Source: an uncultured Gammaproteobacteria bacterium
GTDB lineage: Bacteria; Pseudomonadota; Gammaproteobacteria; SZUA-229
Direction: 5' to 3'
Length of the DNA: 34,786 nucleotides
NCBI GenBank assembly: GCA_913065105.1
Contig: CAJXZZ010000026.1
Span: 1-34,786 of the forward strand
Shown here: positions 9,562 through 18,380 of the stretch, one piece after another
Numbering within the stretch: position 1 is the first letter of the stretch
Layout of the letters: every line of letters begins with the position of its first letter
The notes under the pieces: model-generated
Database searches by the model: none
Told to the model about the DNA's origin: nothing
Seen by the model: the letters and a program-made list of their open reading frames with translations, nothing else
Position numbers and translations under genes: made by a program

Positions 9562-9966
9562 TCAATTGAGGCTCCACATCTTATCTTGATCGCGCAAGTT
9601 GAATAATGCGAAACAGGCGGCCAACATAGGCCAGGCCGCAAAAAATAATAAGTTTGGCCCGTCGAAGGGTGCCAGGTACTGCTTGAACGAAGCCAGAGTA
9701 GACACAGCGTGTAATGCTAATACCGCACCATAGGTGTATTGCTTTTTGTAGCCAGCAACGAACAGTAACAATATGAACATTTCAATGGCACCAATCACAT
9801 ACATTATGTTGACCTCTAGACCGGCAATGTAATAAAACGATGCGTAAACCTTAGAAGCATGTCCAGGATTAATAAATTTATCGATCGTCCACATGAACAT
9901 GACCAGGAAGATAGTCAAACGAATAAATAGCAGTGATAACTGAAGTTTTTTATCTTGTTCTGACAT
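9562..9966 (-). CDS. Four-helix DoxX-like membrane protein
   Basis: 134 residues with four hydrophobic helices (about residues 10-30, 50-70, 77-95 and 105-122) in the spacing typical of DoxX/DoxD-like proteins, including the conserved-looking FINPGHA after helix 1 and a Glu in helix 2 (GAIEMFI). AGGAGA eight bases before the ATG supports the start. DoxX-like proteins are associated with quinone or thiosulfate redox chemistry in some lineages; nothing here fixes the function. It is likely co-transcribed with the secreted protein that follows. Confidence 0.7.
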   Translation of the reverse strand: MSEQDKKLQLSLLFIRLTIFLVMFMWTIDKFINPGHASKVYASFYYIAGLEVNIMYVIGAIEMFILLLFVAGYKKQYTYGAVLALHAVSTLASFKQYLAPFDGPNLLFFAAWPMLAACFALFNLRDQDKMWSLN

Positions 9967-10560: not shown

Positions 10561-13014
10561 ATGAAACAAAAACTGGTATTAATAGGCAATGGTATGGCAG
10601 GTGTTCGTGCTCTTGAGGAACTGTTCAAGCACAACACGTCAGATGAGAAGGGAAGTGATCAGTATGACATTACAGTCATCGGTGCAGAGCCGCATCCTAA
10701 TTATAATCGCATCATGTTGTCACCTGTTCTGGCGGGTGAGCAAACCATCAACGATATTATCCTGAATAGCCTGGAGTGGTATGAAGAAAATAATATCACC
10801 CTGGTTACCGGTGATGCGGCTGCAGAAATTTCACGTGTAAAAAAATCGGTGATTACCGAAAGTGGTAAAGAATTCCCCTACGACCGTTTATTGATTGCTA
10901 CAGGTTCAAATCCATTCATTATCCCAATTCCCGGTGCTGATAAAGAAGGCGTTTTAGGTTTCCGTGATATCTACGATGTCGACACCATGGTACAGGCTGC
11001 AAGAGATTATAAAAAAGCCGTGGTTATCGGCGGTGGTCTATTAGGTCTTGAAGCGGCAAACGGACTGATGAAGCAGGGCATGGATGTGACTGTGGTGCAT
11101 CTGCTTGATTCATTGATGGAGCGTCAATTAGATAAACCGGCTTCTGCTTTATTGAAGGCTTCACTTGAGCAGCGCGGTATGAAGTTCCTCATGGAGGCAT
11201 CAACGGCAGAAATTGCGGGTGACAAACGAGTAAGTTCGGTGAAGTTTACTGATGGTTCTGAACTTGAAGCCGACCTTGTTGTTATGGCTGTTGGTATTCG
11301 ACCTAATTTCGAACTGGCAAAAAAAGCCGGTATTCATTGCGAACGCGGCATCGTGGTCAGCGACACCATGCAAACGTTTGATCCAGTGATTTATTCAGTG
11401 GGTGAGTGTGTGCAGCATCGTAATCAATGTTATGGCCTGGTTGCGCCTCTGTTCGAACAGGCAAAAGTTGCGGCCAACCATCTGGCACATGTGGGCAGTA
11501 CACGTTACATCGGCTCGATGACTTCAACAAAATTAAAAGTAACCGGCATCGATCTTTTTTCTGCTGGTGAATTTAATGAAGAAGAAGGCGATGAAGTTTT
11601 ACAGATACAGGATGTTGCCAGTGGCATGTATAAAAAACTGGTGCTGAAAGACAATGTTATAAAAGGCGCAGTCATGTTTGGCGATACCATGGACGGCACC
11701 TGGTACTTCAGCTTGATGCGTGACGCAGCGAACATTGCGGATTTCCGTAAAACAATATTATTTGGCCAGCATGATCTGGGTGATGCCGGTCATGGTGATG
11801 CGTCTGCTGTAATGTCGTTACCTGATGCTGCTGAGATCTGTGGTTGTAACGGTGTTTCTAAAGGCGACATCGTGCAGGCAATCAGTAAAAATGGACTCTT
11901 TACTTTAGATGAAGTGCGCGCACATACCAAAGCATCTTCTTCCTGTGGGTCATGTACGGGTCTTGTTGAATCTATTCTTGCGTCGACAGTCGGCGAGGGT
12001 TATGACGCAACACCAAGTAAGAAAGCCGTGTGTGCCTGTACTGATCATGGCCATGATGATGTCATCAATGCGATTAAAGATCATGAATTAAAAACCATGC
12101 CTGCGGTTCGCGAATTCCTCGAATGGAAAACACCGGATGGTTGTGCATCCTGTCGTCCAGCCCTGAACTACTATCTGATGGCGCGCTGGCCTGAAGAATA
12201 TCAGGATGACGCGCAATCACGATTCATCAACGAACGTGCGCATGGCAACATTCAAAAAGACGGTACTTATTCTGTGGTGCCGCGTATGTTTGGCGGTCTG
12301 GTTAAACCGAACGAGTTACGTGCCATCGCTGACGTCTGTGACAAATTTGATGTACCGGAAATGAAAGTGACCGGCGGACAGCGTATCGATATGTTCGGTA
12401 TCAAAAAAGAAGACTTGCCGGCAATGTGGAAAGATTTATCGGATGCCGGTTTTGTTTCCGGCCATGCCTACGGTAAAGCCATGCGTACGGTTAAGACCTG
12501 CGCCGGTGACACCTGGTGTCGTTTTGGTACGCAGAATTCCACCGGTCTTGGCGTGAAACTCGAGGAGTTGACCTGGGGTTCATATATGCAACATAAATTC
12601 AAACTCGCAGTATCTGGTTGCCCGCGTAACTGCGCCGAAGCCACCATTAAAGATTTTGGTGTGGTCTGTGTTGATTCAGGTTACGAATTACACATCGGCG
12701 GTAACGGTGGCATCAAAGTCCGTGTTACCGACCTGTTATGTAAGGTAGAAACCGAAGAAGAAGTGTTAGAATACTGCGCTGCTTTTACTCAAAAATATCG
12801 TGAAGAAGCGCATTACCTTGAGCGCACAGCACCCTGGGTTGAGCGTGTAGGCCTGACAAGTATTAAAGAAGTAATTTTGAATAATGAAGAAGAGCGTAAA
12901 GCATTAGCCGAACGTTTCAAGATCAGTCAGAAAATTGCACAGGTCGATCCGTGGAAGGCGCGTGCTGAAGGTGAAGCTTCGCATGAGTTCACGCAGTTAA
13001 AAATTGCTGGTTAA
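10561..13014 (+). CDS. nirB: Assimilatory nitrite reductase NAD(P)H, large subunit
   Basis: 817 residues, close to family length. Reduces nitrite to ammonium with NAD(P)H in the cytoplasm. Domains in order: FAD-binding Rossmann fold with IGNGMAG (residues 8-14), NAD(P)-binding fold with VVIGGGLLGLE (about 154), a BFD-like [2Fe-2S] region with CGC (427/429) and CGSC (462/465), a second CAC (491/493) and CASC (528/531) set, then the sulfite/nitrite reductase domains. Siroheme/[4Fe-4S] ligands are Cys 647 and 653 (CxxxxxC) and Cys 687 and 691 (CPRNC). It is first in an operon with nirD, nasA and a DmsBC-like fusion, under two NtrC sites and a sigma-54 promoter. Expression is thus expected under nitrogen limitation. 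Confidence 0.97.
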   Translation: MKQKLVLIGNGMAGVRALEELFKHNTSDEKGSDQYDITVIGAEPHPNYNRIMLSPVLAGEQTINDIILNSLEWYEENNITLVTGDAAAEISRVKKSVITESGKEFPYDRLLIATGSNPFIIPIPGADKEGVLGFRDIYDVDTMVQAARDYKKAVVIGGGLLGLEAANGLMKQGMDVTVVHLLDSLMERQLDKPASALLKASLEQRGMKFLMEASTAEIAGDKRVSSVKFTDGSELEADLVVMAVGIRPNFELAKKAGIHCERGIVVSDTMQTFDPVIYSVGECVQHRNQCYGLVAPLFEQAKVAANHLAHVGSTRYIGSMTSTKLKVTGIDLFSAGEFNEEEGDEVLQIQDVASGMYKKLVLKDNVIKGAVMFGDTMDGTWYFSLMRDAANIADFRKTILFGQHDLGDAGHGDASAVMSLPDAAEICGCNGVSKGDIVQAISKNGLFTLDEVRAHTKASSSCGSCTGLVESILASTVGEGYDATPSKKAVCACTDHGHDDVINAIKDHELKTMPAVREFLEWKTPDGCASCRPALNYYLMARWPEEYQDDAQSRFINERAHGNIQKDGTYSVVPRMFGGLVKPNELRAIADVCDKFDVPEMKVTGGQRIDMFGIKKEDLPAMWKDLSDAGFVSGHAYGKAMRTVKTCAGDTWCRFGTQNSTGLGVKLEELTWGSYMQHKFKLAVSGCPRNCAEATIKDFGVVCVDSGYELHIGGNGGIKVRVTDLLCKVETEEEVLEYCAAFTQKYREEAHYLERTAPWVERVGLTSIKEVILNNEEERKALAERFKISQKIAQVDPWKARAEGEASHEFTQLKIAG

Positions 13015-13059
13015 ACCATGAATTCGAATGCATTAAAAAATATAGTTGGAGAAGAAAAA

Positions 13060-13386
13060 ATGAGTAACTGGACAGAAGTAGTAGCACTGGAAGATATTCC
13101 ACGATTAGGTTCACGAGTGATTGCCACTGACACCATGAATATCGCGGTATTTCGTACTGCAAGTGATGAAGTATTTGCCATGAGAGATGAGTGTCCCCAT
13201 AAAAAAGGACCGCTATCTCAAGGTATCGTGCATGGTAATACAGTTACCTGCCCATTACATAACTGGAAGATTGATCTGGCCAGTGGTGAAGCCCTGGGGC
13301 CAGATGAAGGCTGTACCAATGTATTCCCAACTAAAGTAGAGAATGGCATGGTGTATATCAGTCTTGCTGTGGCCGCGGCTGCTTAA
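13060..13386 (+). CDS. nirD: Nitrite reductase small subunit, Rieske type
   Basis: 108 residues from the ATG at 13060, preceded by GGAGAAG; the frame opens at 13018, just after nirB, but that start lacks a ribosome site. One Rieske domain with intact [2Fe-2S] ligands: Cys45 and His47 (CPH), Cys64 and His67 (CPLH). The E. coli NirD lacks these ligands, so this belongs to the cluster-retaining type. It pairs with NirB in nitrite reduction to ammonium. A terminator-like hairpin follows before nasA. Confidence 0.93.
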   Translation: MSNWTEVVALEDIPRLGSRVIATDTMNIAVFRTASDEVFAMRDECPHKKGPLSQGIVHGNTVTCPLHNWKIDLASGEALGPDEGCTNVFPTKVENGMVYISLAVAAAA

Positions 13387-13499: not shown

Positions 13500-15704
13500 A
13501 TGTTATTCGGACGTAAACAAAAAAATCCAATTAAGATTGTCGACAAGGGTGTGGTCGAATGGAAATATGCCACCTGTGGTTATTGTTCGACGGGTTGTGC
13601 TATCGAAGTTGGGCTGAACCAGGAAGGTAAACCGGTTTCATCACGTGGTGTTGCTGATGCGGATGTCAACCGCGGCAAGTTATGTCTGAAAGGTATTTAT
13701 GAACACGAGTTATTTGACTCTGCTGGGCGAGGTACAGTGCCTAAGAAACGTGATCAGTGGCATCAGGACTGGCAGCCTACAGATTGGGATACTGCGCTGG
13801 ATACGACTCACGATGAAATTCGACGCATCCAGGAAAAGTACGGCCGTGATTCATTCGCTATCATTTCCACAGGTCAGATGCTGACCGAAGAGTTTTATAC
13901 CCTGGGTAAATTGACTCGTGGTCTGATCGGCACTAACAACTATGATGGTAATACCACCCTGTGTATGGCTTCTGCTGTATCAGGATATAAACGTTCATTC
14001 GGTTCTGATGGCCCACCGGGCTGTTACGAAGATTTCGAACATACCGATTGCCTGATTGCATGGGGCTCTAATCTTCCTGAGCAACACCCCATCATTTACT
14101 GGCGCATGAAAGATGCACAGGAAAAACGCAAATTTCCGTTGATCGTTGTCGATCCCCGCGTGACCATGTTGGCGCAATTCGCAGACATCCATCTGCCCAT
14201 CACGCCCGGCACTGATGTGGTTTTGCAAAATGCGCTGATGCACGTCATCTTCGATGAGAATCTTGAAGACGCTGCGTACATCGAAGCCAATACTAATGAC
14301 GTAGAGGCGTTGCGCGAAGAAGTTGCTAAATACGATCCGACGACAGCTGCGAAAATATGTGGTATCGATGAAGATACGATCCGTAGTGTGGCGCGTTTAT
14401 ATGCTAATGCCGGTGCAGCCATGTCGATCTGGACCATGGGCATTAATCAATCAACACACGGCTCCGATGGTGTTGTTGGTATTAATAATCTCGCCTTGAT
14501 CACCGGCAACATTGGCAAACCCGGTGGCACATCACTGTCTATAACAGGGCAGTGTAATGCGATGGGTACAAGAGAATGGTCTTCCTGTTCTGGTCTGCCT
14601 AACTATCGTGCGCTGGAAAATGCGCAAGACCGAAAAGACATTGCCGAATTCTGGAATATCGATGAAGAGTTTCTGCCGAAAAAACGCGGCATGTTTCAAA
14701 CCGATATCTACCATGCCATCGAAACAGGACAGATCAAAGGTCTGTGGTTGATTGCCACCAATCCGTTAAGCTCATTACCCAATTCAGAACGTGTTCGTCG
14801 TGCCATGCAAAAACTCGAATTCTGTGCCGTGCAAGACTGTTATGAAGATACCGAAAGTGCGCAGTATGCACATGTGTACCTGCCTGCTGGCACCTGGGCC
14901 GAAAAAGAAGGTGTGATGACCAATACCGAGCGCCGCGTTAATTTAGTTAAACCGATCGTGAAACCACCGGGGGAAGCTAAACCGGACTTATGGGTTTTCA
15001 ATGAGATGGCTAAGCGTTTCAATAAAGGCGGAAAAGTTACTTTCCCCGAAAAAGCAGCTGATATATTTATGGAGATGGCCAGTATTTCAAAAGGTCGGCT
15101 GGCAGATATCTCTGGCATGAGTCATGATCTGATCGAAAAAAATCGCGGCGTACAATGGCCCTACACTGACAAGCAGCTTGATAATAATGAGACGCCTCCA
15201 CAAGGTGGCAAACGGCTTTACACAGAAGCAACAACGTTTCGTTATGCAGACGGCAAAGCAAAGCTCATACCCCTGCCATTTATAGATAACAACGAAGTGC
15301 CAGACGAAAAATTTCCGATCTGGCTTAACACCGGCCGTCTGGTCGAGCATTGGCACGGGCGCAGTAAAACCGGAAAGATTGGTAACAATAATAAATATAG
15401 TCCGATACCCTTCATCGAAATTAATCCTGACCTCGCGGCTGAGTTAGATATTCAACGCGGCGAGTATGTGCGCCTGGTCTCTCGTCGTTCCGATGCAGTG
15501 GTCATGGCAACACCGACTCAGCGCGTACCTAAAAATATGATATTTCTGCCGTTTCATTTTCACGACTGTGCTAATCGTTTAACGCTTGGTTTACTTGATC
15601 CTCATTCTCGTCAGCCTGCTTACAAACAATCGGCCGTACGCATTGAAAAACTGGATGACCAGCAAGCGGCGGCGAAACTAAGCATGGAAATGCGCGCATT
15701 CTAA
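13500..15704 (+). CDS. nasA: Nas-type molybdenum nitrate reductase catalytic subunit
   Basis: 734 residues of the molybdopterin oxidoreductase family; reduces nitrate to nitrite. The N-terminal [4Fe-4S] ligands are Cys26, 29, 33 and 62. LCMASAVSGYK, with the probable Mo-ligating Cys155, is the Nas/NarB-type signature. The C-terminal molydopterin-dinucleotide-binding domain spans about 610-725. There is no twin-arginine signal, so it is cytoplasmic. Many NasA proteins are 850-900 residues with a C-terminal [2Fe-2S] BFD domain; that extension is absent. Its place is apparently taken by the separate DmsBC-like electron-transfer protein four bases downstream. mobB nearby supplies its cofactor. 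Nitrate is the most likely substrate from the operon, though other oxyanions cannot be excluded. Confidence 0.9.
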   Translation: MLFGRKQKNPIKIVDKGVVEWKYATCGYCSTGCAIEVGLNQEGKPVSSRGVADADVNRGKLCLKGIYEHELFDSAGRGTVPKKRDQWHQDWQPTDWDTALDTTHDEIRRIQEKYGRDSFAIISTGQMLTEEFYTLGKLTRGLIGTNNYDGNTTLCMASAVSGYKRSFGSDGPPGCYEDFEHTDCLIAWGSNLPEQHPIIYWRMKDAQEKRKFPLIVVDPRVTMLAQFADIHLPITPGTDVVLQNALMHVIFDENLEDAAYIEANTNDVEALREEVAKYDPTTAAKICGIDEDTIRSVARLYANAGAAMSIWTMGINQSTHGSDGVVGINNLALITGNIGKPGGTSLSITGQCNAMGTREWSSCSGLPNYRALENAQDRKDIAEFWNIDEEFLPKKRGMFQTDIYHAIETGQIKGLWLIATNPLSSLPNSERVRRAMQKLEFCAVQDCYEDTESAQYAHVYLPAGTWAEKEGVMTNTERRVNLVKPIVKPPGEAKPDLWVFNEMAKRFNKGGKVTFPEKAADIFMEMASISKGRLADISGMSHDLIEKNRGVQWPYTDKQLDNNETPPQGGKRLYTEATTFRYADGKAKLIPLPFIDNNEVPDEKFPIWLNTGRLVEHWHGRSKTGKIGNNNKYSPIPFIEINPDLAAELDIQRGEYVRLVSRRSDAVVMATPTQRVPKNMIFLPFHFHDCANRLTLGLLDPHSRQPAYKQSAVRIEKLDDQQAAAKLSMEMRAF

Positions 15705-15719
15705 AGGTTGATAATTATT

Positions 15720-17603
15720 GTGTTTGAAAAAAGAGAAAATGAACCCGATTACGCATTGTTGAACGATGCTAGTTGCCAAACGCTTAATCGTTATGGTGAC
15801 CCTATCGATACCGTGCAAGTAGAAGATGCAAGACGCGATCAATCGTTAAATATAAATGATGATGCCGGTATTGGTGAAAACCCTAATCGTTACAAACAAC
15901 ATGGTTTTTATTTTACTGCGGATAACTGTATCGCCTGTCATGCATGTGAAGCCGCATGCAGTGAAAAGAACGATAATCCTGCGCATATTTCTTTTCGTTC
16001 TGTAGGATTTGTAGAAGGTGGTACCTACCCTGCGTACCAACGTCTTAATATTTCTATGGCATGTAATCACTGCGATGATCCGGTGTGTTTGAAGGGTTGC
16101 CCGACGCGTGCTTATACCAAGTACGCGGAGTACGGTGCTGTGTTGCAAGATCCGGACATCTGTTTTGGCTGTGGTTACTGTACGTGGGTGTGTCCCTATA
16201 ATGCGCCGCAACTTGATCCGGTAAAAGGTCAGGTAAGTAAATGCAATATGTGTGTAGACCGACTCGAAGTTGGATTGAAGCCCGCTTGTGTTTCAGCCTG
16301 TCTAGGTAATGCACTGGACTTTGGCGTGATTGAAAATGTTCCTGAAAACCGTACTCAGGCCAAGACGGAGATTCCTGGTTTTCCGCGAACAGATATTACC
16401 CATCCTAACATTCGTTTTCAGCAGACGCGTACCACGCAACGTGACATGAATCGTGTTGACCAGAGCCCGGTTAAATATCACCGCGAAGAGAGTTCTGAAA
16501 ATTTCAAACCAGTAGCGGATGTGAAGCAGGGTGTTAAACGCGAGTGGAACTGGACTAAGTTATTAGGTTCGCACGAAAATGCACATATTGCTTTTACCCT
16601 GAGTGCACAGACTGTGATGGCAGCTTTTTTGATATTGCTTTCCGGTTATGTGTTTGAGCCTGTTAAGAGTTTTCAATCGAGCAGTGCTATGTTGCCTGGT
16701 CTGTTGGTCATGTTTGTGCTGATGAGTTTTGGCTTGTTCAAGCTGAACATGCACCTGGGAAAACCGCATCACTTTTATCGTGGTTTCTATAATCTTAGGC
16801 ATTCACCGGTCAGTCGTGAGATTGCAGGTGTTTCTGCATTTTATACCGGCCTGTTGGGATACGGTTTTTTTGCGCTGTTTGAAAATAACTACGCACAACT
16901 ATTGCAGATGCTATTTGCAGCTATCGGGGTTCTGGGTGCTGTATTCGGTGGTTATTACATGTACAAGTTATACCGTATTGAAGCTCGCCCATTCTGGAAT
17001 CATTGGCATACCGCTGCAAGTTTCTGTGCGACGGGATTGACGCTAGGTCCATTATTATTAGCCGCTGTCGCATTAGTATTTTCCAGCATGACTGTTGATC
17101 TCAGCGAAGTTTTGTTGAGCATGATTAGTATCGGTTTAGTGTTTGAGCTGACAGGACTGACTGCGCATGCCAGAAGTCTAAAGTCGGTCAGCAGTGAAGG
17201 CGCAGCATCGTTTTATCTACAGACCACTCGATATGGTAACGCATACTGGTTGCGCAATGGTTTGCTGCTACTAGCGTTGCTGTTAGCTGGTTATATGTTG
17301 TTTAGTAGTAAACACACGCTATTTTTATATAGCTTGTTAACCGTTATCACGCTCGGCAGTAATGTCATCGGTCGCGCGTTATTTTATGTTGTCGTTATTC
17401 CCACCACGATGCCAGGTGCATTTTTCTGGAAAAATGATGGTTTCGTCGAACATGCTAGAGAAATAGGTCTGGCCGACATGCCGCAGATGGGTGTGGCATA
17501 TGAAACACATCATGCTTTTAATGTTGGTGAGCTAATCGCAGCAATTAAAACGACAACGATGAAACAAAAATTTTCACAGTTCCGCAGTATTTTTACTGGT
17601 TAA
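15720..17603 (+). CDS. DmsB-DmsC fusion: four-cluster ferredoxin plus membrane anchor
   Basis: About 627 residues. Residues 60-195 hold four [4Fe-4S] motifs as in DmsB: CIACHACEAAC (from C70), CNHCDDPVCLKGC, CFGCGYCTWVC and CNMC...PACVSAC. After a linker, residues 285-600 contain eight hydrophobic helices as in DmsC, the quinol-oxidising anchor, including HLGKPHHFYRG. Normally these are two subunits. The frame opens at a TTG (15708), but AAAGG twelve bases before GTG 15720 favours that start. It overlaps the nasA operon closely (15 bases), so it very likely passes quinol electrons to NasA. As NasA has no export signal, the ferredoxin half should face the cytoplasm. No characterised example of this Nas pairing is known to me. 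Confidence 0.85.
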   Translation: MFEKRENEPDYALLNDASCQTLNRYGDPIDTVQVEDARRDQSLNINDDAGIGENPNRYKQHGFYFTADNCIACHACEAACSEKNDNPAHISFRSVGFVEGGTYPAYQRLNISMACNHCDDPVCLKGCPTRAYTKYAEYGAVLQDPDICFGCGYCTWVCPYNAPQLDPVKGQVSKCNMCVDRLEVGLKPACVSACLGNALDFGVIENVPENRTQAKTEIPGFPRTDITHPNIRFQQTRTTQRDMNRVDQSPVKYHREESSENFKPVADVKQGVKREWNWTKLLGSHENAHIAFTLSAQTVMAAFLILLSGYVFEPVKSFQSSSAMLPGLLVMFVLMSFGLFKLNMHLGKPHHFYRGFYNLRHSPVSREIAGVSAFYTGLLGYGFFALFENNYAQLLQMLFAAIGVLGAVFGGYYMYKLYRIEARPFWNHWHTAASFCATGLTLGPLLLAAVALVFSSMTVDLSEVLLSMISIGLVFELTGLTAHARSLKSVSSEGAASFYLQTTRYGNAYWLRNGLLLLALLLAGYMLFSSKHTLFLYSLLTVITLGSNVIGRALFYVVVIPTTMPGAFFWKNDGFVEHAREIGLADMPQMGVAYETHHAFNVGELIAAIKTTTMKQKFSQFRSIFTG

Positions 17604-17813: not shown

Positions 17814-18380
17814 ATGGAAAAGTTTAAAGATAAAAAAATGCCGTTCGCAAAACCTGTTCTGGGTTTAGCGGCTTATTCGGGCACAGGAAAAACTACCCTA
17901 TTGGTTAAGCTTTTACCGTTAATGAAATTACAGGGTTTGCGTGTTGCTATGGTTAAACATACTCATCACGACTTTGATATTGATAAACCGGGTAAAGATA
18001 GCTTTGAATTAAGAAAGGCCGGTGCAGATCAAGTTTTGCTTGCTTCAGATAAGCGATATGCCTTATTGACGGAATATGAGAAACCGTATGAGGCAGATAT
18101 AAATACATTGATTGAAAAACTCGATCTGGAAAATCTCGATCTGGTCATGGTTGAGGGTTTCAGGCATCTACCATTCCCCAAGATAGAGCTGCACCGACCT
18201 GTTATGGCAAAGCCATTACTTTTTAAAGAAGATAAATCCATAATAGCGGTTGCTTCTGATGGAGATATAGAAACAGGAGAATTGCCATTGCTTAATTTAA
18301 ATGCGCCTGAAGAAATTGCGGGTTTTATCAATCGTTGGTTGGACAATCAGACCGGCCACGGTATAGAGCAGTGTGCCTGA
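17814..18380 (+). CDS. mobB: Molybdopterin-guanine dinucleotide biosynthesis adaptor MobB
   Basis: 188 residues. P-loop GTPase with Walker A AYSGTGKTTL (about residues 21-30), the conserved KHTHHDFDIDKPGKDS block that follows it in MobB, and VMVEGFRHLP (the E-G-[FY] Walker B region). It assists MobA in attaching GMP to molybdopterin, the cofactor form used by NasA-type enzymes. AAAGGTGATATTTC precedes the ATG. It is 210 bases from the nitrate reductase operon in the same direction and may be partly co-transcribed. That gap holds no gene or clear terminator. Confidence 0.93.
   Translation: MEKFKDKKMPFAKPVLGLAAYSGTGKTTLLVKLLPLMKLQGLRVAMVKHTHHDFDIDKPGKDSFELRKAGADQVLLASDKRYALLTEYEKPYEADINTLIEKLDLENLDLVMVEGFRHLPFPKIELHRPVMAKPLLFKEDKSIIAVASDGDIETGELPLLNLNAPEEIAGFINRWLDNQTGHGIEQCA

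What the first reader, a model, noticed from the sequence alone, without database searches (positions are those of the whole stretch)
13500..17603. Nas-type nitrate reductase joined to a DmsB-DmsC fusion rather than its usual redox partner
NasA lacks the C-terminal extension seen in many relatives and has no Tat signal. It is immediately followed by one polypeptide combining a four-cluster DmsB ferredoxin with an eight-helix DmsC quinol anchor. This suggests a cytoplasmic, quinol-driven assimilatory nitrate reductase, a different energy route from flavoprotein or ferredoxin-fed NasA. The presence of both parts is seen; their coupling is inferred from position. I know of no characterised example.
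Basis: partly seen in the sequence, partly recalled or inferred. Interest (0 to 1): 0.72.

Follow-up and report, generated by a model that had tools for sequence, protein, structure and literature searches.

The report
Membrane-tethered, quinol-fed cytoplasmic nitrate reductase
A nitrate reductase gene sits next to, and is inherited together with, a gene for a membrane anchor that probably feeds it electrons straight from the respiratory chain instead of from NADH, which would be a cheaper way for sulfur- and methane-oxidising bacteria to start using nitrate as a nitrogen source.

Summary
A 734-aa Tat-less, extension-less molybdenum nitrate reductase (13500-15704) is followed by one polypeptide (start likelier GTG 15720 than TTG 15708) joining a four-cluster DmsB ferredoxin to an eight-helix DmsC anchor. 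Of 369 genomes spread over the class, 60 have the fusion, 62 this NasA type, 59 both; 58 of 61 fusion places adjoin nasA. Six genomes deviate: four by contig ends, one with unlinked genes, one with NasA and no fusion found. Of 398 phylum genomes the same six have both.

The anchor keeps the quinol-site His and Glu of DmsC, but its charge pattern is opposite to that of six DmsC proteins with Tat-exported partners and matches a SoeC-like protein, so the ferredoxin side should face the cytoplasm. Best reading: an inward-facing quinol:nitrate oxidoreductase handing nitrite to NirBD. This NasA is a clade of its own beside classical BFD-bearing NasA. Activity, quinol dependence and assimilatory role are inferred; the NasA-DmsB interface could not be modelled. 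Eight paper searches showed no description. New variant of a known kind.

The parts
10561..13014 (+). nirB, large subunit of NAD(P)H nitrite reductase
   Evidence: TIGR02374 951.5 bits against a cut-off of 578
13018..13386 (+). nirD, Rieske-type small subunit of nitrite reductase
   Evidence: TIGR02378 99.5 bits against a cut-off of 74.7
13500..15704 (+). nasA-like catalytic subunit, 734 aa; FS0 cysteines C26, C29, C33, C62 and Mo-ligand Cys C155 in a CMASAV motif; no Tat signal, no BFD domain
   Evidence: Pfam; invariant columns; residues; tree. That these Cys bind the cluster and Mo is by family knowledge
15720..17603 (+). DmsB-DmsC fusion, 627 aa from the likely GTG start (the longest ORF starts at TTG 15708)
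15888..16424 (+). DmsB-type ferredoxin domain (residues about 57-235 of 627), 16 cysteines for four [4Fe-4S] clusters
   Evidence: TIGR02951 158 bits (below its cut-off of 214); 16 Cys invariant
16566..17432 (+). DmsC anchor domain (residues about 283-571), eight membrane helices
   Evidence: PF04976 72 bits against 22.3; model with pLDDT about 90 over most helices; PsrC 2vpw_C Z 17.4 and ActC 8k9e_C Z 22.2, but cytochrome bd chains reach Z 16.7-19.4 too
16752..16754 (+). His345 of the fusion, equivalent of E. coli DmsC His65 (quinol site)
   Evidence: codon CAC; His in all 16 rows of the alignment; role of DmsC His65 in PMC8076601 passages
16818..16820 (+). Glu367 of the fusion, equivalent of E. 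coli DmsC Glu87 (quinol site)
   Evidence: codon GAG; Glu in all 16 rows; role of DmsC Glu87 in PMC8076601 passages
17814..18380 (+). mobB, molybdopterin guanine dinucleotide synthesis adaptor
   Evidence: TIGR00176 147.9 bits against a cut-off of 76.2; a mobB-like ORF is in 6 of the 80 named loci

Best explanation
The two genes encode one membrane-tethered, inward-facing quinol:nitrate oxidoreductase. Quinol is oxidised in the DmsC domain of the fusion, near the cytoplasmic face. Electrons run through the four clusters of the fused DmsB domain to the FeS cluster and the Mo-bisMGD centre of NasA, where nitrate becomes nitrite in the cytoplasm. NirBD, encoded just upstream, then reduces nitrite to ammonium with NADH. 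So only the second step costs NADH. Shown by sequence: the parts, their cofactor ligands, the absence of a twin-arginine signal, the inverted charge pattern, the conserved partnership. Inferred: complex formation, direction, substrate, quinone type, assimilatory role. If quinol protons are released on the cytoplasmic side the reaction conserves no energy, unlike NarGHI; this too is inferred.
For: Partnership: 73 of 80 named loci have this nasA upstream on the same strand and the other 7 have at most 206 nt of upstream sequence. Among 398 phylum genomes 6 (G000 included) have the fusion and the same 6 have this NasA, adjacent in 6 of 6. Among 369 class genomes 60 have the fusion, 62 the NasA, 59 both, and 58 of 61 fusion places adjoin nasA. 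Gap in similarity: in the phylum sample the next NasA homologues fall to 36-40% identity, and none of the 61 genomes with only those has the fusion. Orientation: K+R mean 6.9 in loops on the DmsB side against 0.6 on the other, same direction in 47 of 47 rows; six of six DmsC from operons with twin-arginine DmsA have the opposite bias, while the SoeC-like protein of the same genome, whose partner lacks a twin arginine, agrees with the fusion. Quinol site: His345 and Glu367 in all 16 rows; Ser362 invariant in both alignments; their equivalents His65, Ser82 and Glu87 are in the DmsC site (PMC8076601 passages). Nitrate: the Mo-ligand Cys is in CMASAV, as in the genome's own NapA-like protein; nirB- or nirD-like ORFs are in 46 of the 80 named loci, and in 34 of the 41 that are 12 kb or longer; a transporter over the TIGR00886 cut-off is in the genome. 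The genome, 99.7% complete, has no NarG over cut-off, no BFD-type NasA among its NasA matches, and one Tat-bearing NapA-like protein.
Against: No biochemical test. The NasA+DmsB model was unusable (mean pLDDT 51.4), and the DmsB part of the fusion model is poor too. One genome (G706, 93% complete) has the NasA with a convergent gene directly downstream and no fusion in the assembly; in G051 the two genes are on different contigs. Distance co-variation of NasA and fusion beyond NirB is modest (partial r 0.40) and smaller than that of NasA with NirB (0.57), so it does not single out the pair. The NasA scores best, below cut-off, against formate dehydrogenase TIGR01591. Ser62 of the DmsC site is not kept (Leu342). 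The fold match is not specific to quinol-oxidising NrfD-like anchors, as cytochrome bd chains score about as high as PsrC. A few 36-40% NasA homologues have short open frames too (G206:C43 705 aa, G305 724, G598 750), so short NasA without the fusion may exist; I did not examine them.
Confidence: 0.77

Rival explanations
1. Same complex, but its main role is respiratory or redox-balancing: a cytoplasmic, non-electrogenic nitrate respiration or ammonification with NirBD, not nitrogen assimilation.
For: Quinol as donor is typical of respiration; many carriers are sulfur oxidisers or symbionts (titles); some genomes keep a BFD-type NasA as well, in Methylobacter even in the same cluster.
Against: Carriers include Methylomonas, Cycloclasticus and Azohydromonas, which I recall as aerobes; the window's genome has a NapA-like protein that could serve respiration and no other cytoplasmic nitrate reductase that I could find.
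Confidence: 0.25
2. NasA is fed by NADH through NirB/NirD, as proposed for Paracoccus NasC with NasB/NasG, and the fusion is an independent or accessory protein.
For: nirBD lie directly upstream; in Paracoccus the nitrite reductase subunits are thought to serve both steps (PMC3475470 passage).
Against: This NasA lacks the BFD domain, whose motif ends the Paracoccus plasmid protein. The fusion co-occurs with this NasA in 59 of 60 class genomes, and with none of 61 phylum genomes that have only the 36-40% homologues. In the 15.9 kb Azohydromonas locus no nirB- or nirD-like ORF was found beside the pair.
Confidence: 0.1
3. The catalytic subunit is not a nitrate reductase but another enzyme of the family, for example a formate dehydrogenase that reduces quinone.
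For: Best NCBIfam hit is TIGR01591 Fdh-alpha, 537.6 bits, below its cut-off of 666. Its nearest tree neighbour is a Tat-bearing group of unknown function.
Against: It groups with NasA- and NapA-type rows and not with five FDH rows (two annotated as formate dehydrogenase, three labelled so by me; 100/100 split); it carries CMASAV, as the NapA-like protein does; nirB- or nirD-like ORFs are in 34 of 41 long loci.
Confidence: 0.06
4. The fusion serves another molybdoenzyme, such as the genome's SoeA-like protein, as well as or instead of NasA.
For: The same genome encodes SoeA-like, SoeB-like and SoeC-like proteins.
Against: The SoeA-like gene has its own B and C genes next to it; 58 of 61 class fusion places adjoin nasA.
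Confidence: 0.04

Closest known systems
DmsABC / YnfFGH (DMSO-type complex iron-sulfur molybdoenzymes)
   Same: Same kinds of subunit: bis-MGD catalytic subunit with FS0, four-cluster ferredoxin (38.8% identity to YnfG over the DmsB part), eight-helix anchor (26.8% to YnfH over 213 residues), His and Glu of the quinol site.
   Different: B and C are one polypeptide, no twin arginine, inverted charge pattern and so probably cytoplasmic, NasA/NapA-type catalytic subunit instead of DmsA.
SoeABC, cytoplasmic sulfite:quinone oxidoreductase
   Same: Inward-facing, no Tat signal, same charge pattern of the anchor in the SoeC-like protein of this genome; in the passages seen, the one NrfD-like complex that a review describes as inverted (PMC8076601).
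   Different: Oxidises sulfite and reduces quinone; separate B and C subunits; the SoeA-like protein matches NasA only over residues 19-271 at 26%; the anchor matches SoeC more weakly than YnfH.
Classical NasA/NasC assimilatory nitrate reductase (with BFD domain, fed by NADH through a flavoprotein or NirBD)
   Same: Cytoplasmic nitrate reductase type, about 32-40% identity, next to nirBD.
   Different: Has a C-terminal BFD domain (Pfam for two; motif by eye in 14 rows); separate clade; no DmsBC anchor beside it in the loci where I looked.
NarB and Bacillus-type NasC
   Same: Short, no BFD domain (Bacillus NasC 729 aa, PMC3475470 passage; NarB recalled).
   Different: Fed by ferredoxin or other soluble donors (recalled); no DmsBC partner known to me. 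No such row was in my tree.
NarGHI respiratory nitrate reductase
   Same: Quinol-fed, active site in the cytoplasm.
   Different: Dihaem NarI with its quinone site on the periplasmic side (PMC6303296 passage), large NarG; here a DmsC-type anchor with its site expected on the cytoplasmic side.

Membership tests
DmsABC-type complex iron-sulfur molybdoenzyme | B subunit with four [4Fe-4S] motifs | tested here: met
   16 Cys invariant in 12 rows; but TIGR02951 158.2 bits is under its cut-off of 214.1
DmsABC-type complex iron-sulfur molybdoenzyme | Eight-helix DmsC/NrfD-like anchor with quinol-site His and Glu | tested here: met
   PF04976 over cut-off, eight helices, His345/Glu367, PsrC and ActC folds
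DmsABC-type complex iron-sulfur molybdoenzyme | Tat-exported DmsA-family catalytic subunit, periplasmic complex | tested here: not met
   No twin arginine; DmsA-family model TIGR02166 134 bits against 778; charge pattern opposite to six DmsC
DmsABC-type complex iron-sulfur molybdoenzyme | B and C as separate subunits | tested here: not met
   One ORF; 81 plus-strand loci also give one uninterrupted frame over both domains
Classical NasA/NasC assimilatory nitrate reductase | Curated model NF047855 (NasC) or NF041323 (haloarchaeal NasA) over cut-off | tested here: not met
   486 against 1100 bits; 462 against 1000
Classical NasA/NasC assimilatory nitrate reductase | Falls inside the clade of BFD-bearing NasA | tested here: not met
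   Separate clades, 100/99 and 100/100; no NarB or Bacillus NasC row included, deep branches long
Classical NasA/NasC assimilatory nitrate reductase | Gene linkage to nirBD | tested here: met
   nirB and nirD directly upstream; nirB- or nirD-like ORF in 34 of 41 named loci of 12 kb or more
Nitrate reductase by activity | Reduces nitrate to nitrite | not testable with these tools
   Needs enzyme assay
SoeABC | Inward-facing anchor | tested here: met
   15 against 1 K+R in the SoeC-like protein of this genome, 10 against 2 in the fusion; prediction, not a topology experiment
SoeABC | SoeA-family catalytic subunit | tested here: not met
   Only a partial 26% match between NasA and the SoeA-like protein; the label SoeA-like is mine, from size, Pfam domains and lack of a twin arginine
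NarGHI | NarG-family catalytic subunit | tested here: not met
   TIGR01580 42.7 bits against 1084
Formate dehydrogenase (TIGR01591) | Over curated cut-off | tested here: not met
   537.6 against 666.25 bits

The most novel reading that the evidence does not exclude
A separate and widespread class of nitrate reductase has gone unnamed: an inward-facing quinol:nitrate oxidoreductase in which a NapA/NasA-like subunit is docked to a one-piece DmsB-DmsC with the anchor turned round in the membrane. It would let organisms for which NADH is costly (sulfur oxidisers, methanotrophs, animal symbionts) pay for the first step of nitrate assimilation with respiratory-chain electrons. In the boldest form, the NrfD-like anchor releases the quinol protons outside, so that this step also conserves energy.
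Probability: 0.55. Interest if true: 0.76.

Novelty: new variant of a known kind. Interest (0 to 1): 0.64.

Why it matters
Textbook nitrate assimilation is paid for with NADH, NADPH or ferredoxin. A quinol-fed route changes the energy budget of nitrogen assimilation in sulfur-oxidising bacteria, methanotrophs and tubeworm or bivalve symbionts, where low-potential electrons are scarce (reverse electron transport; established knowledge, not tested here). It is common in the sample drawn (60 of 369 class genomes), and records titled Methylomonas methanica, Azohydromonas lata and Sulfuricella sp. carry it, so it can be tested by gene deletion in cultures. It would also be a second inverted NrfD-like anchor beside SoeC.

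Tried and rejected
Structure of the NasA-DmsB interface: one chain read through the nasA stop (990 aa) gave mean pLDDT 51.4 and pTM 0.50; discarded, no conclusion drawn. The fusion model is good only in the DmsC part, so only that part is used.

Co-variation of NasA and fusion distances: r 0.77, partial r 0.40 given NirB over 27 loci, above 2000 permutations (maximum 0.27), but NasA with NirB is stronger (0.57); not used as evidence for the pair.

Formate dehydrogenase identity: considered because of the TIGR01591 top hit, rejected on tree and motif. Plasmid and viral collections: no plasmid place covers 80% of the fusion, no viral contig matches its patterns.

Rows dropped before counts: I call 'window-type' only NasA matches of 62% identity or more. 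In one search four of the 33 matching genomes (G006, G016, G034, G044) match only over a DmsB-like stretch or weakly and are not counted as fusions. One search lists 64 genomes; G048 and G598 (38%) were left out, leaving 62. First looks scored only 2 or 3 candidates a genome. The samples and 81/82 share genomes, G000 among them, and some named loci are the same contigs as unnamed ones by length, so these counts must not be added.

Literature: ten searches, of which eight bear on the pairing; one search was on SoeABC and on the DmsC quinol site. None of the listings, and none of the passages that I opened, described nasA with DmsBC. The library holds open-licence papers only. I saw passages, not whole texts, of PMC4013037, PMC5728499, PMC3475470, PMC10609526, PMC10100899, PMC7767063, PMC6303296, PMC8076601, PMC13059093 and PMC6397845. 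In PMC8076601, a review of NrfD-like complexes, 'fused' and 'fusion' do not occur and 'nitrate' occurs once, in a reference title.


Full report
What is there. The window carries nirB (10561-13014), nirD (13018-13386), a nasA-like gene (13500-15704), a DmsB-DmsC fusion gene (longest ORF 15708-17603) and mobB (17814-18380), all on the + strand. The nasA product has the FeS, molybdopterin and dinucleotide-binding domains and ends 24 residues after the last one; no BFD domain is reported and there is no twin arginine. The fusion reads DmsB then DmsC. Homologues align from about the residue at GTG 15720, so the protein is probably 627 aa. The 16 cluster cysteines are invariant in 12 diverse rows.

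Is the pairing real? (a) Of 80 named loci found with a fusion alignment, 73 have this nasA upstream on the same strand; the other seven have 0 to 206 nt of upstream sequence. (b) Among 58 relatives, 29 genomes have the fusion and 31 have this NasA type; 28 have both. The three with NasA only have the contig cut inside nasA, and the one with the fusion only (G024) is 57% complete. (c) Among 398 genomes spread over the phylum, six, G000 included, have the fusion and the same six have this NasA at 67% identity or more, adjacent each time; 61 other genomes pass E 1e-130 with NasA homologues of 36-40% identity and none has the fusion. (d) Among 369 genomes spread over the class, 60 have the fusion, 62 the NasA, 59 both; 58 of 61 fusion places adjoin nasA. 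Six genomes deviate. G607 has both genes at contig ends; G608, G496 and G690 are cut by contig ends. G051 has the two genes on different contigs. G706 has the NasA and no detectable fusion. A hypergeometric figure (1e-63) ignores kinship and should not be read as a probability, but the carriers span many families.

What kind of NasA is it? A tree of 44 rows places the window type in a clade of its own (100/100), next to a Tat-bearing group with a CMAAAV motif (96/97), and apart from the clade of NasA with a BFD domain (100/99) and from five FDH rows. The program warns that the join with the Tat group unites long branches, and no NarB or Bacillus NasC row was available, so the deeper order is unsure. 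Fourteen NasA-like rows of 32-40% identity end in the BFD motif, read by eye; Pfam confirms it for the two that I scanned. In the phylum and class lists a few such homologues have open frames near 700-750 aa (G206, G305, G598), so short NasA without a fusion may exist; I did not look into them. In two Methylobacter loci both kinds stand side by side: NasA with DmsB-DmsC, then a nirB-N-terminus-like flavoprotein, then NasA with the BFD motif (Pfam for one). That is a natural contrast of two electron routes.

Which way does it face? Loops on the DmsB side hold on average 6.9 Lys+Arg, those on the other side 0.6, in the same direction in 47 of 47 rows. By the positive-inside rule the DmsB domain is cytoplasmic, as expected for a protein with no export signal. 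The control is informative: six of six DmsC/YnfH proteins whose DmsA partner has a twin arginine show the opposite bias, while the SoeC-like protein of this same genome, whose partner has none, shows the bias of the fusion (a single SoeC-like row). SoeC is described as inverted in a review of NrfD-like subunits (PMC8076601 passages). By sequence the anchor domain is closer to YnfH (E 1e-13) than to the SoeC-like protein (E 7e-4), so inversion may have arisen twice; this is inference.

Does it bind quinol? His345 and Glu367 are present in all 16 rows and correspond to His65 and Glu87 of E. coli DmsC, whose replacement affects quinol oxidation or binding (PMC8076601 passages; PMC13059093 passage). 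Ser362 corresponds to Ser82 of the site and is invariant; Ser62 is replaced by Leu. The anchor model matches PsrC with bound menaquinone (2vpw_C, Z 17.4, 246 residues, 3.5 A) and ActC (Z 22.2), but cytochrome bd chains score Z 16.7-19.4, so the fold alone does not settle function. The review places the site next to the FeS subunit, hence here on the cytoplasmic side.

How it most likely works. Quinol is oxidised at the cytoplasmic side, electrons pass through the fused ferredoxin to NasA, nitrate becomes nitrite, and NirBD takes it to ammonium with NADH. The redox drop from ubiquinol (about +0.1 V, recalled) to nitrate (433 mV, PMC10100899 passage) suffices. In lithotrophs and methanotrophs NADH is made at a cost, so this saves one NADH per nitrate. 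By my reading of titles, of 80 loci 18 are from methanotroph taxa, 15 from Thiotrichaceae and kin, 5 Sedimenticola, 5 tubeworm or bivalve symbionts, 4 Cycloclasticus, 2 Sulfuricella and 1 Azohydromonas; the other 30 have broad or other names, and all 80 were chosen as best matches to the fusion. In the window's genome the only other nitrate reductase I found is a Tat-bearing NapA-like protein, and a transporter over the TIGR00886 cut-off is present.

What stays open. Nitrate as substrate, quinol as donor, the physical complex, energy conservation and the assimilatory role are not shown. The interface model failed. Novelty rests on eight searches of an open-access library and on passages of a review of NrfD-like complexes that do not list this one; a subscription paper could exist.

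Noticed in passing
L081:4681-12896 and L104:4661-12930 (Methylobacter): Both kinds of nitrate reductase in one cluster: NasA with DmsB-DmsC fusion, then a flavoprotein like the N-terminus of NirB, then NasA with the BFD motif.
   Followed up: partly
L040:1631-9063 and L101:1528-8806: BFD-type nasA stands between nirD and the window-type nasA with its fusion, so both may be in one operon.
   Followed up: partly
L098:3676-4755, L082:3793-4770, L096:3730-4662: A PhzF-like gene (PF02567) lies between a nirB-like gene and nasA in Methylomonas, Cycloclasticus and another Methylococcaceae; role unknown.
   Followed up: no
L129:3840-6317 and L131:4036-6513: Tat-bearing NapA-like molybdoenzyme with a CMAAAV motif, nearest tree neighbour of the window-type NasA; in L129 the next gene has weak matches to multihaem cytochrome families. 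Function unknown.
   Followed up: partly
L039:5901-7721 and L137:7163-9373 (G051): Fusion (beside a mobB-like ORF) and nasA (beside nirBD) lie on different contigs; this nasA branches at the base of the clade. Could be the older unlinked state or a split.
   Followed up: partly
L175:3-1796 (G706): Window-type NasA with a convergent gene downstream and no fusion found in a 93% complete assembly: what feeds it?
   Followed up: partly
L059:5732-7001, L094:5610-7001, L102:6219-7001: Stretches of about 0.8 to 1.4 kb lie between nasA and the fusion, so the pair survives insertions; contents not identified.
   Followed up: no
G000:C9, locus L047:7538-12232: SoeABC-like operon in the window's own genome (971, 243 and 325 aa).
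   Followed up: yes
9562-9966 (-): Small predicted protein upstream of nirB, no Pfam family at E 0.001.
   Followed up: no
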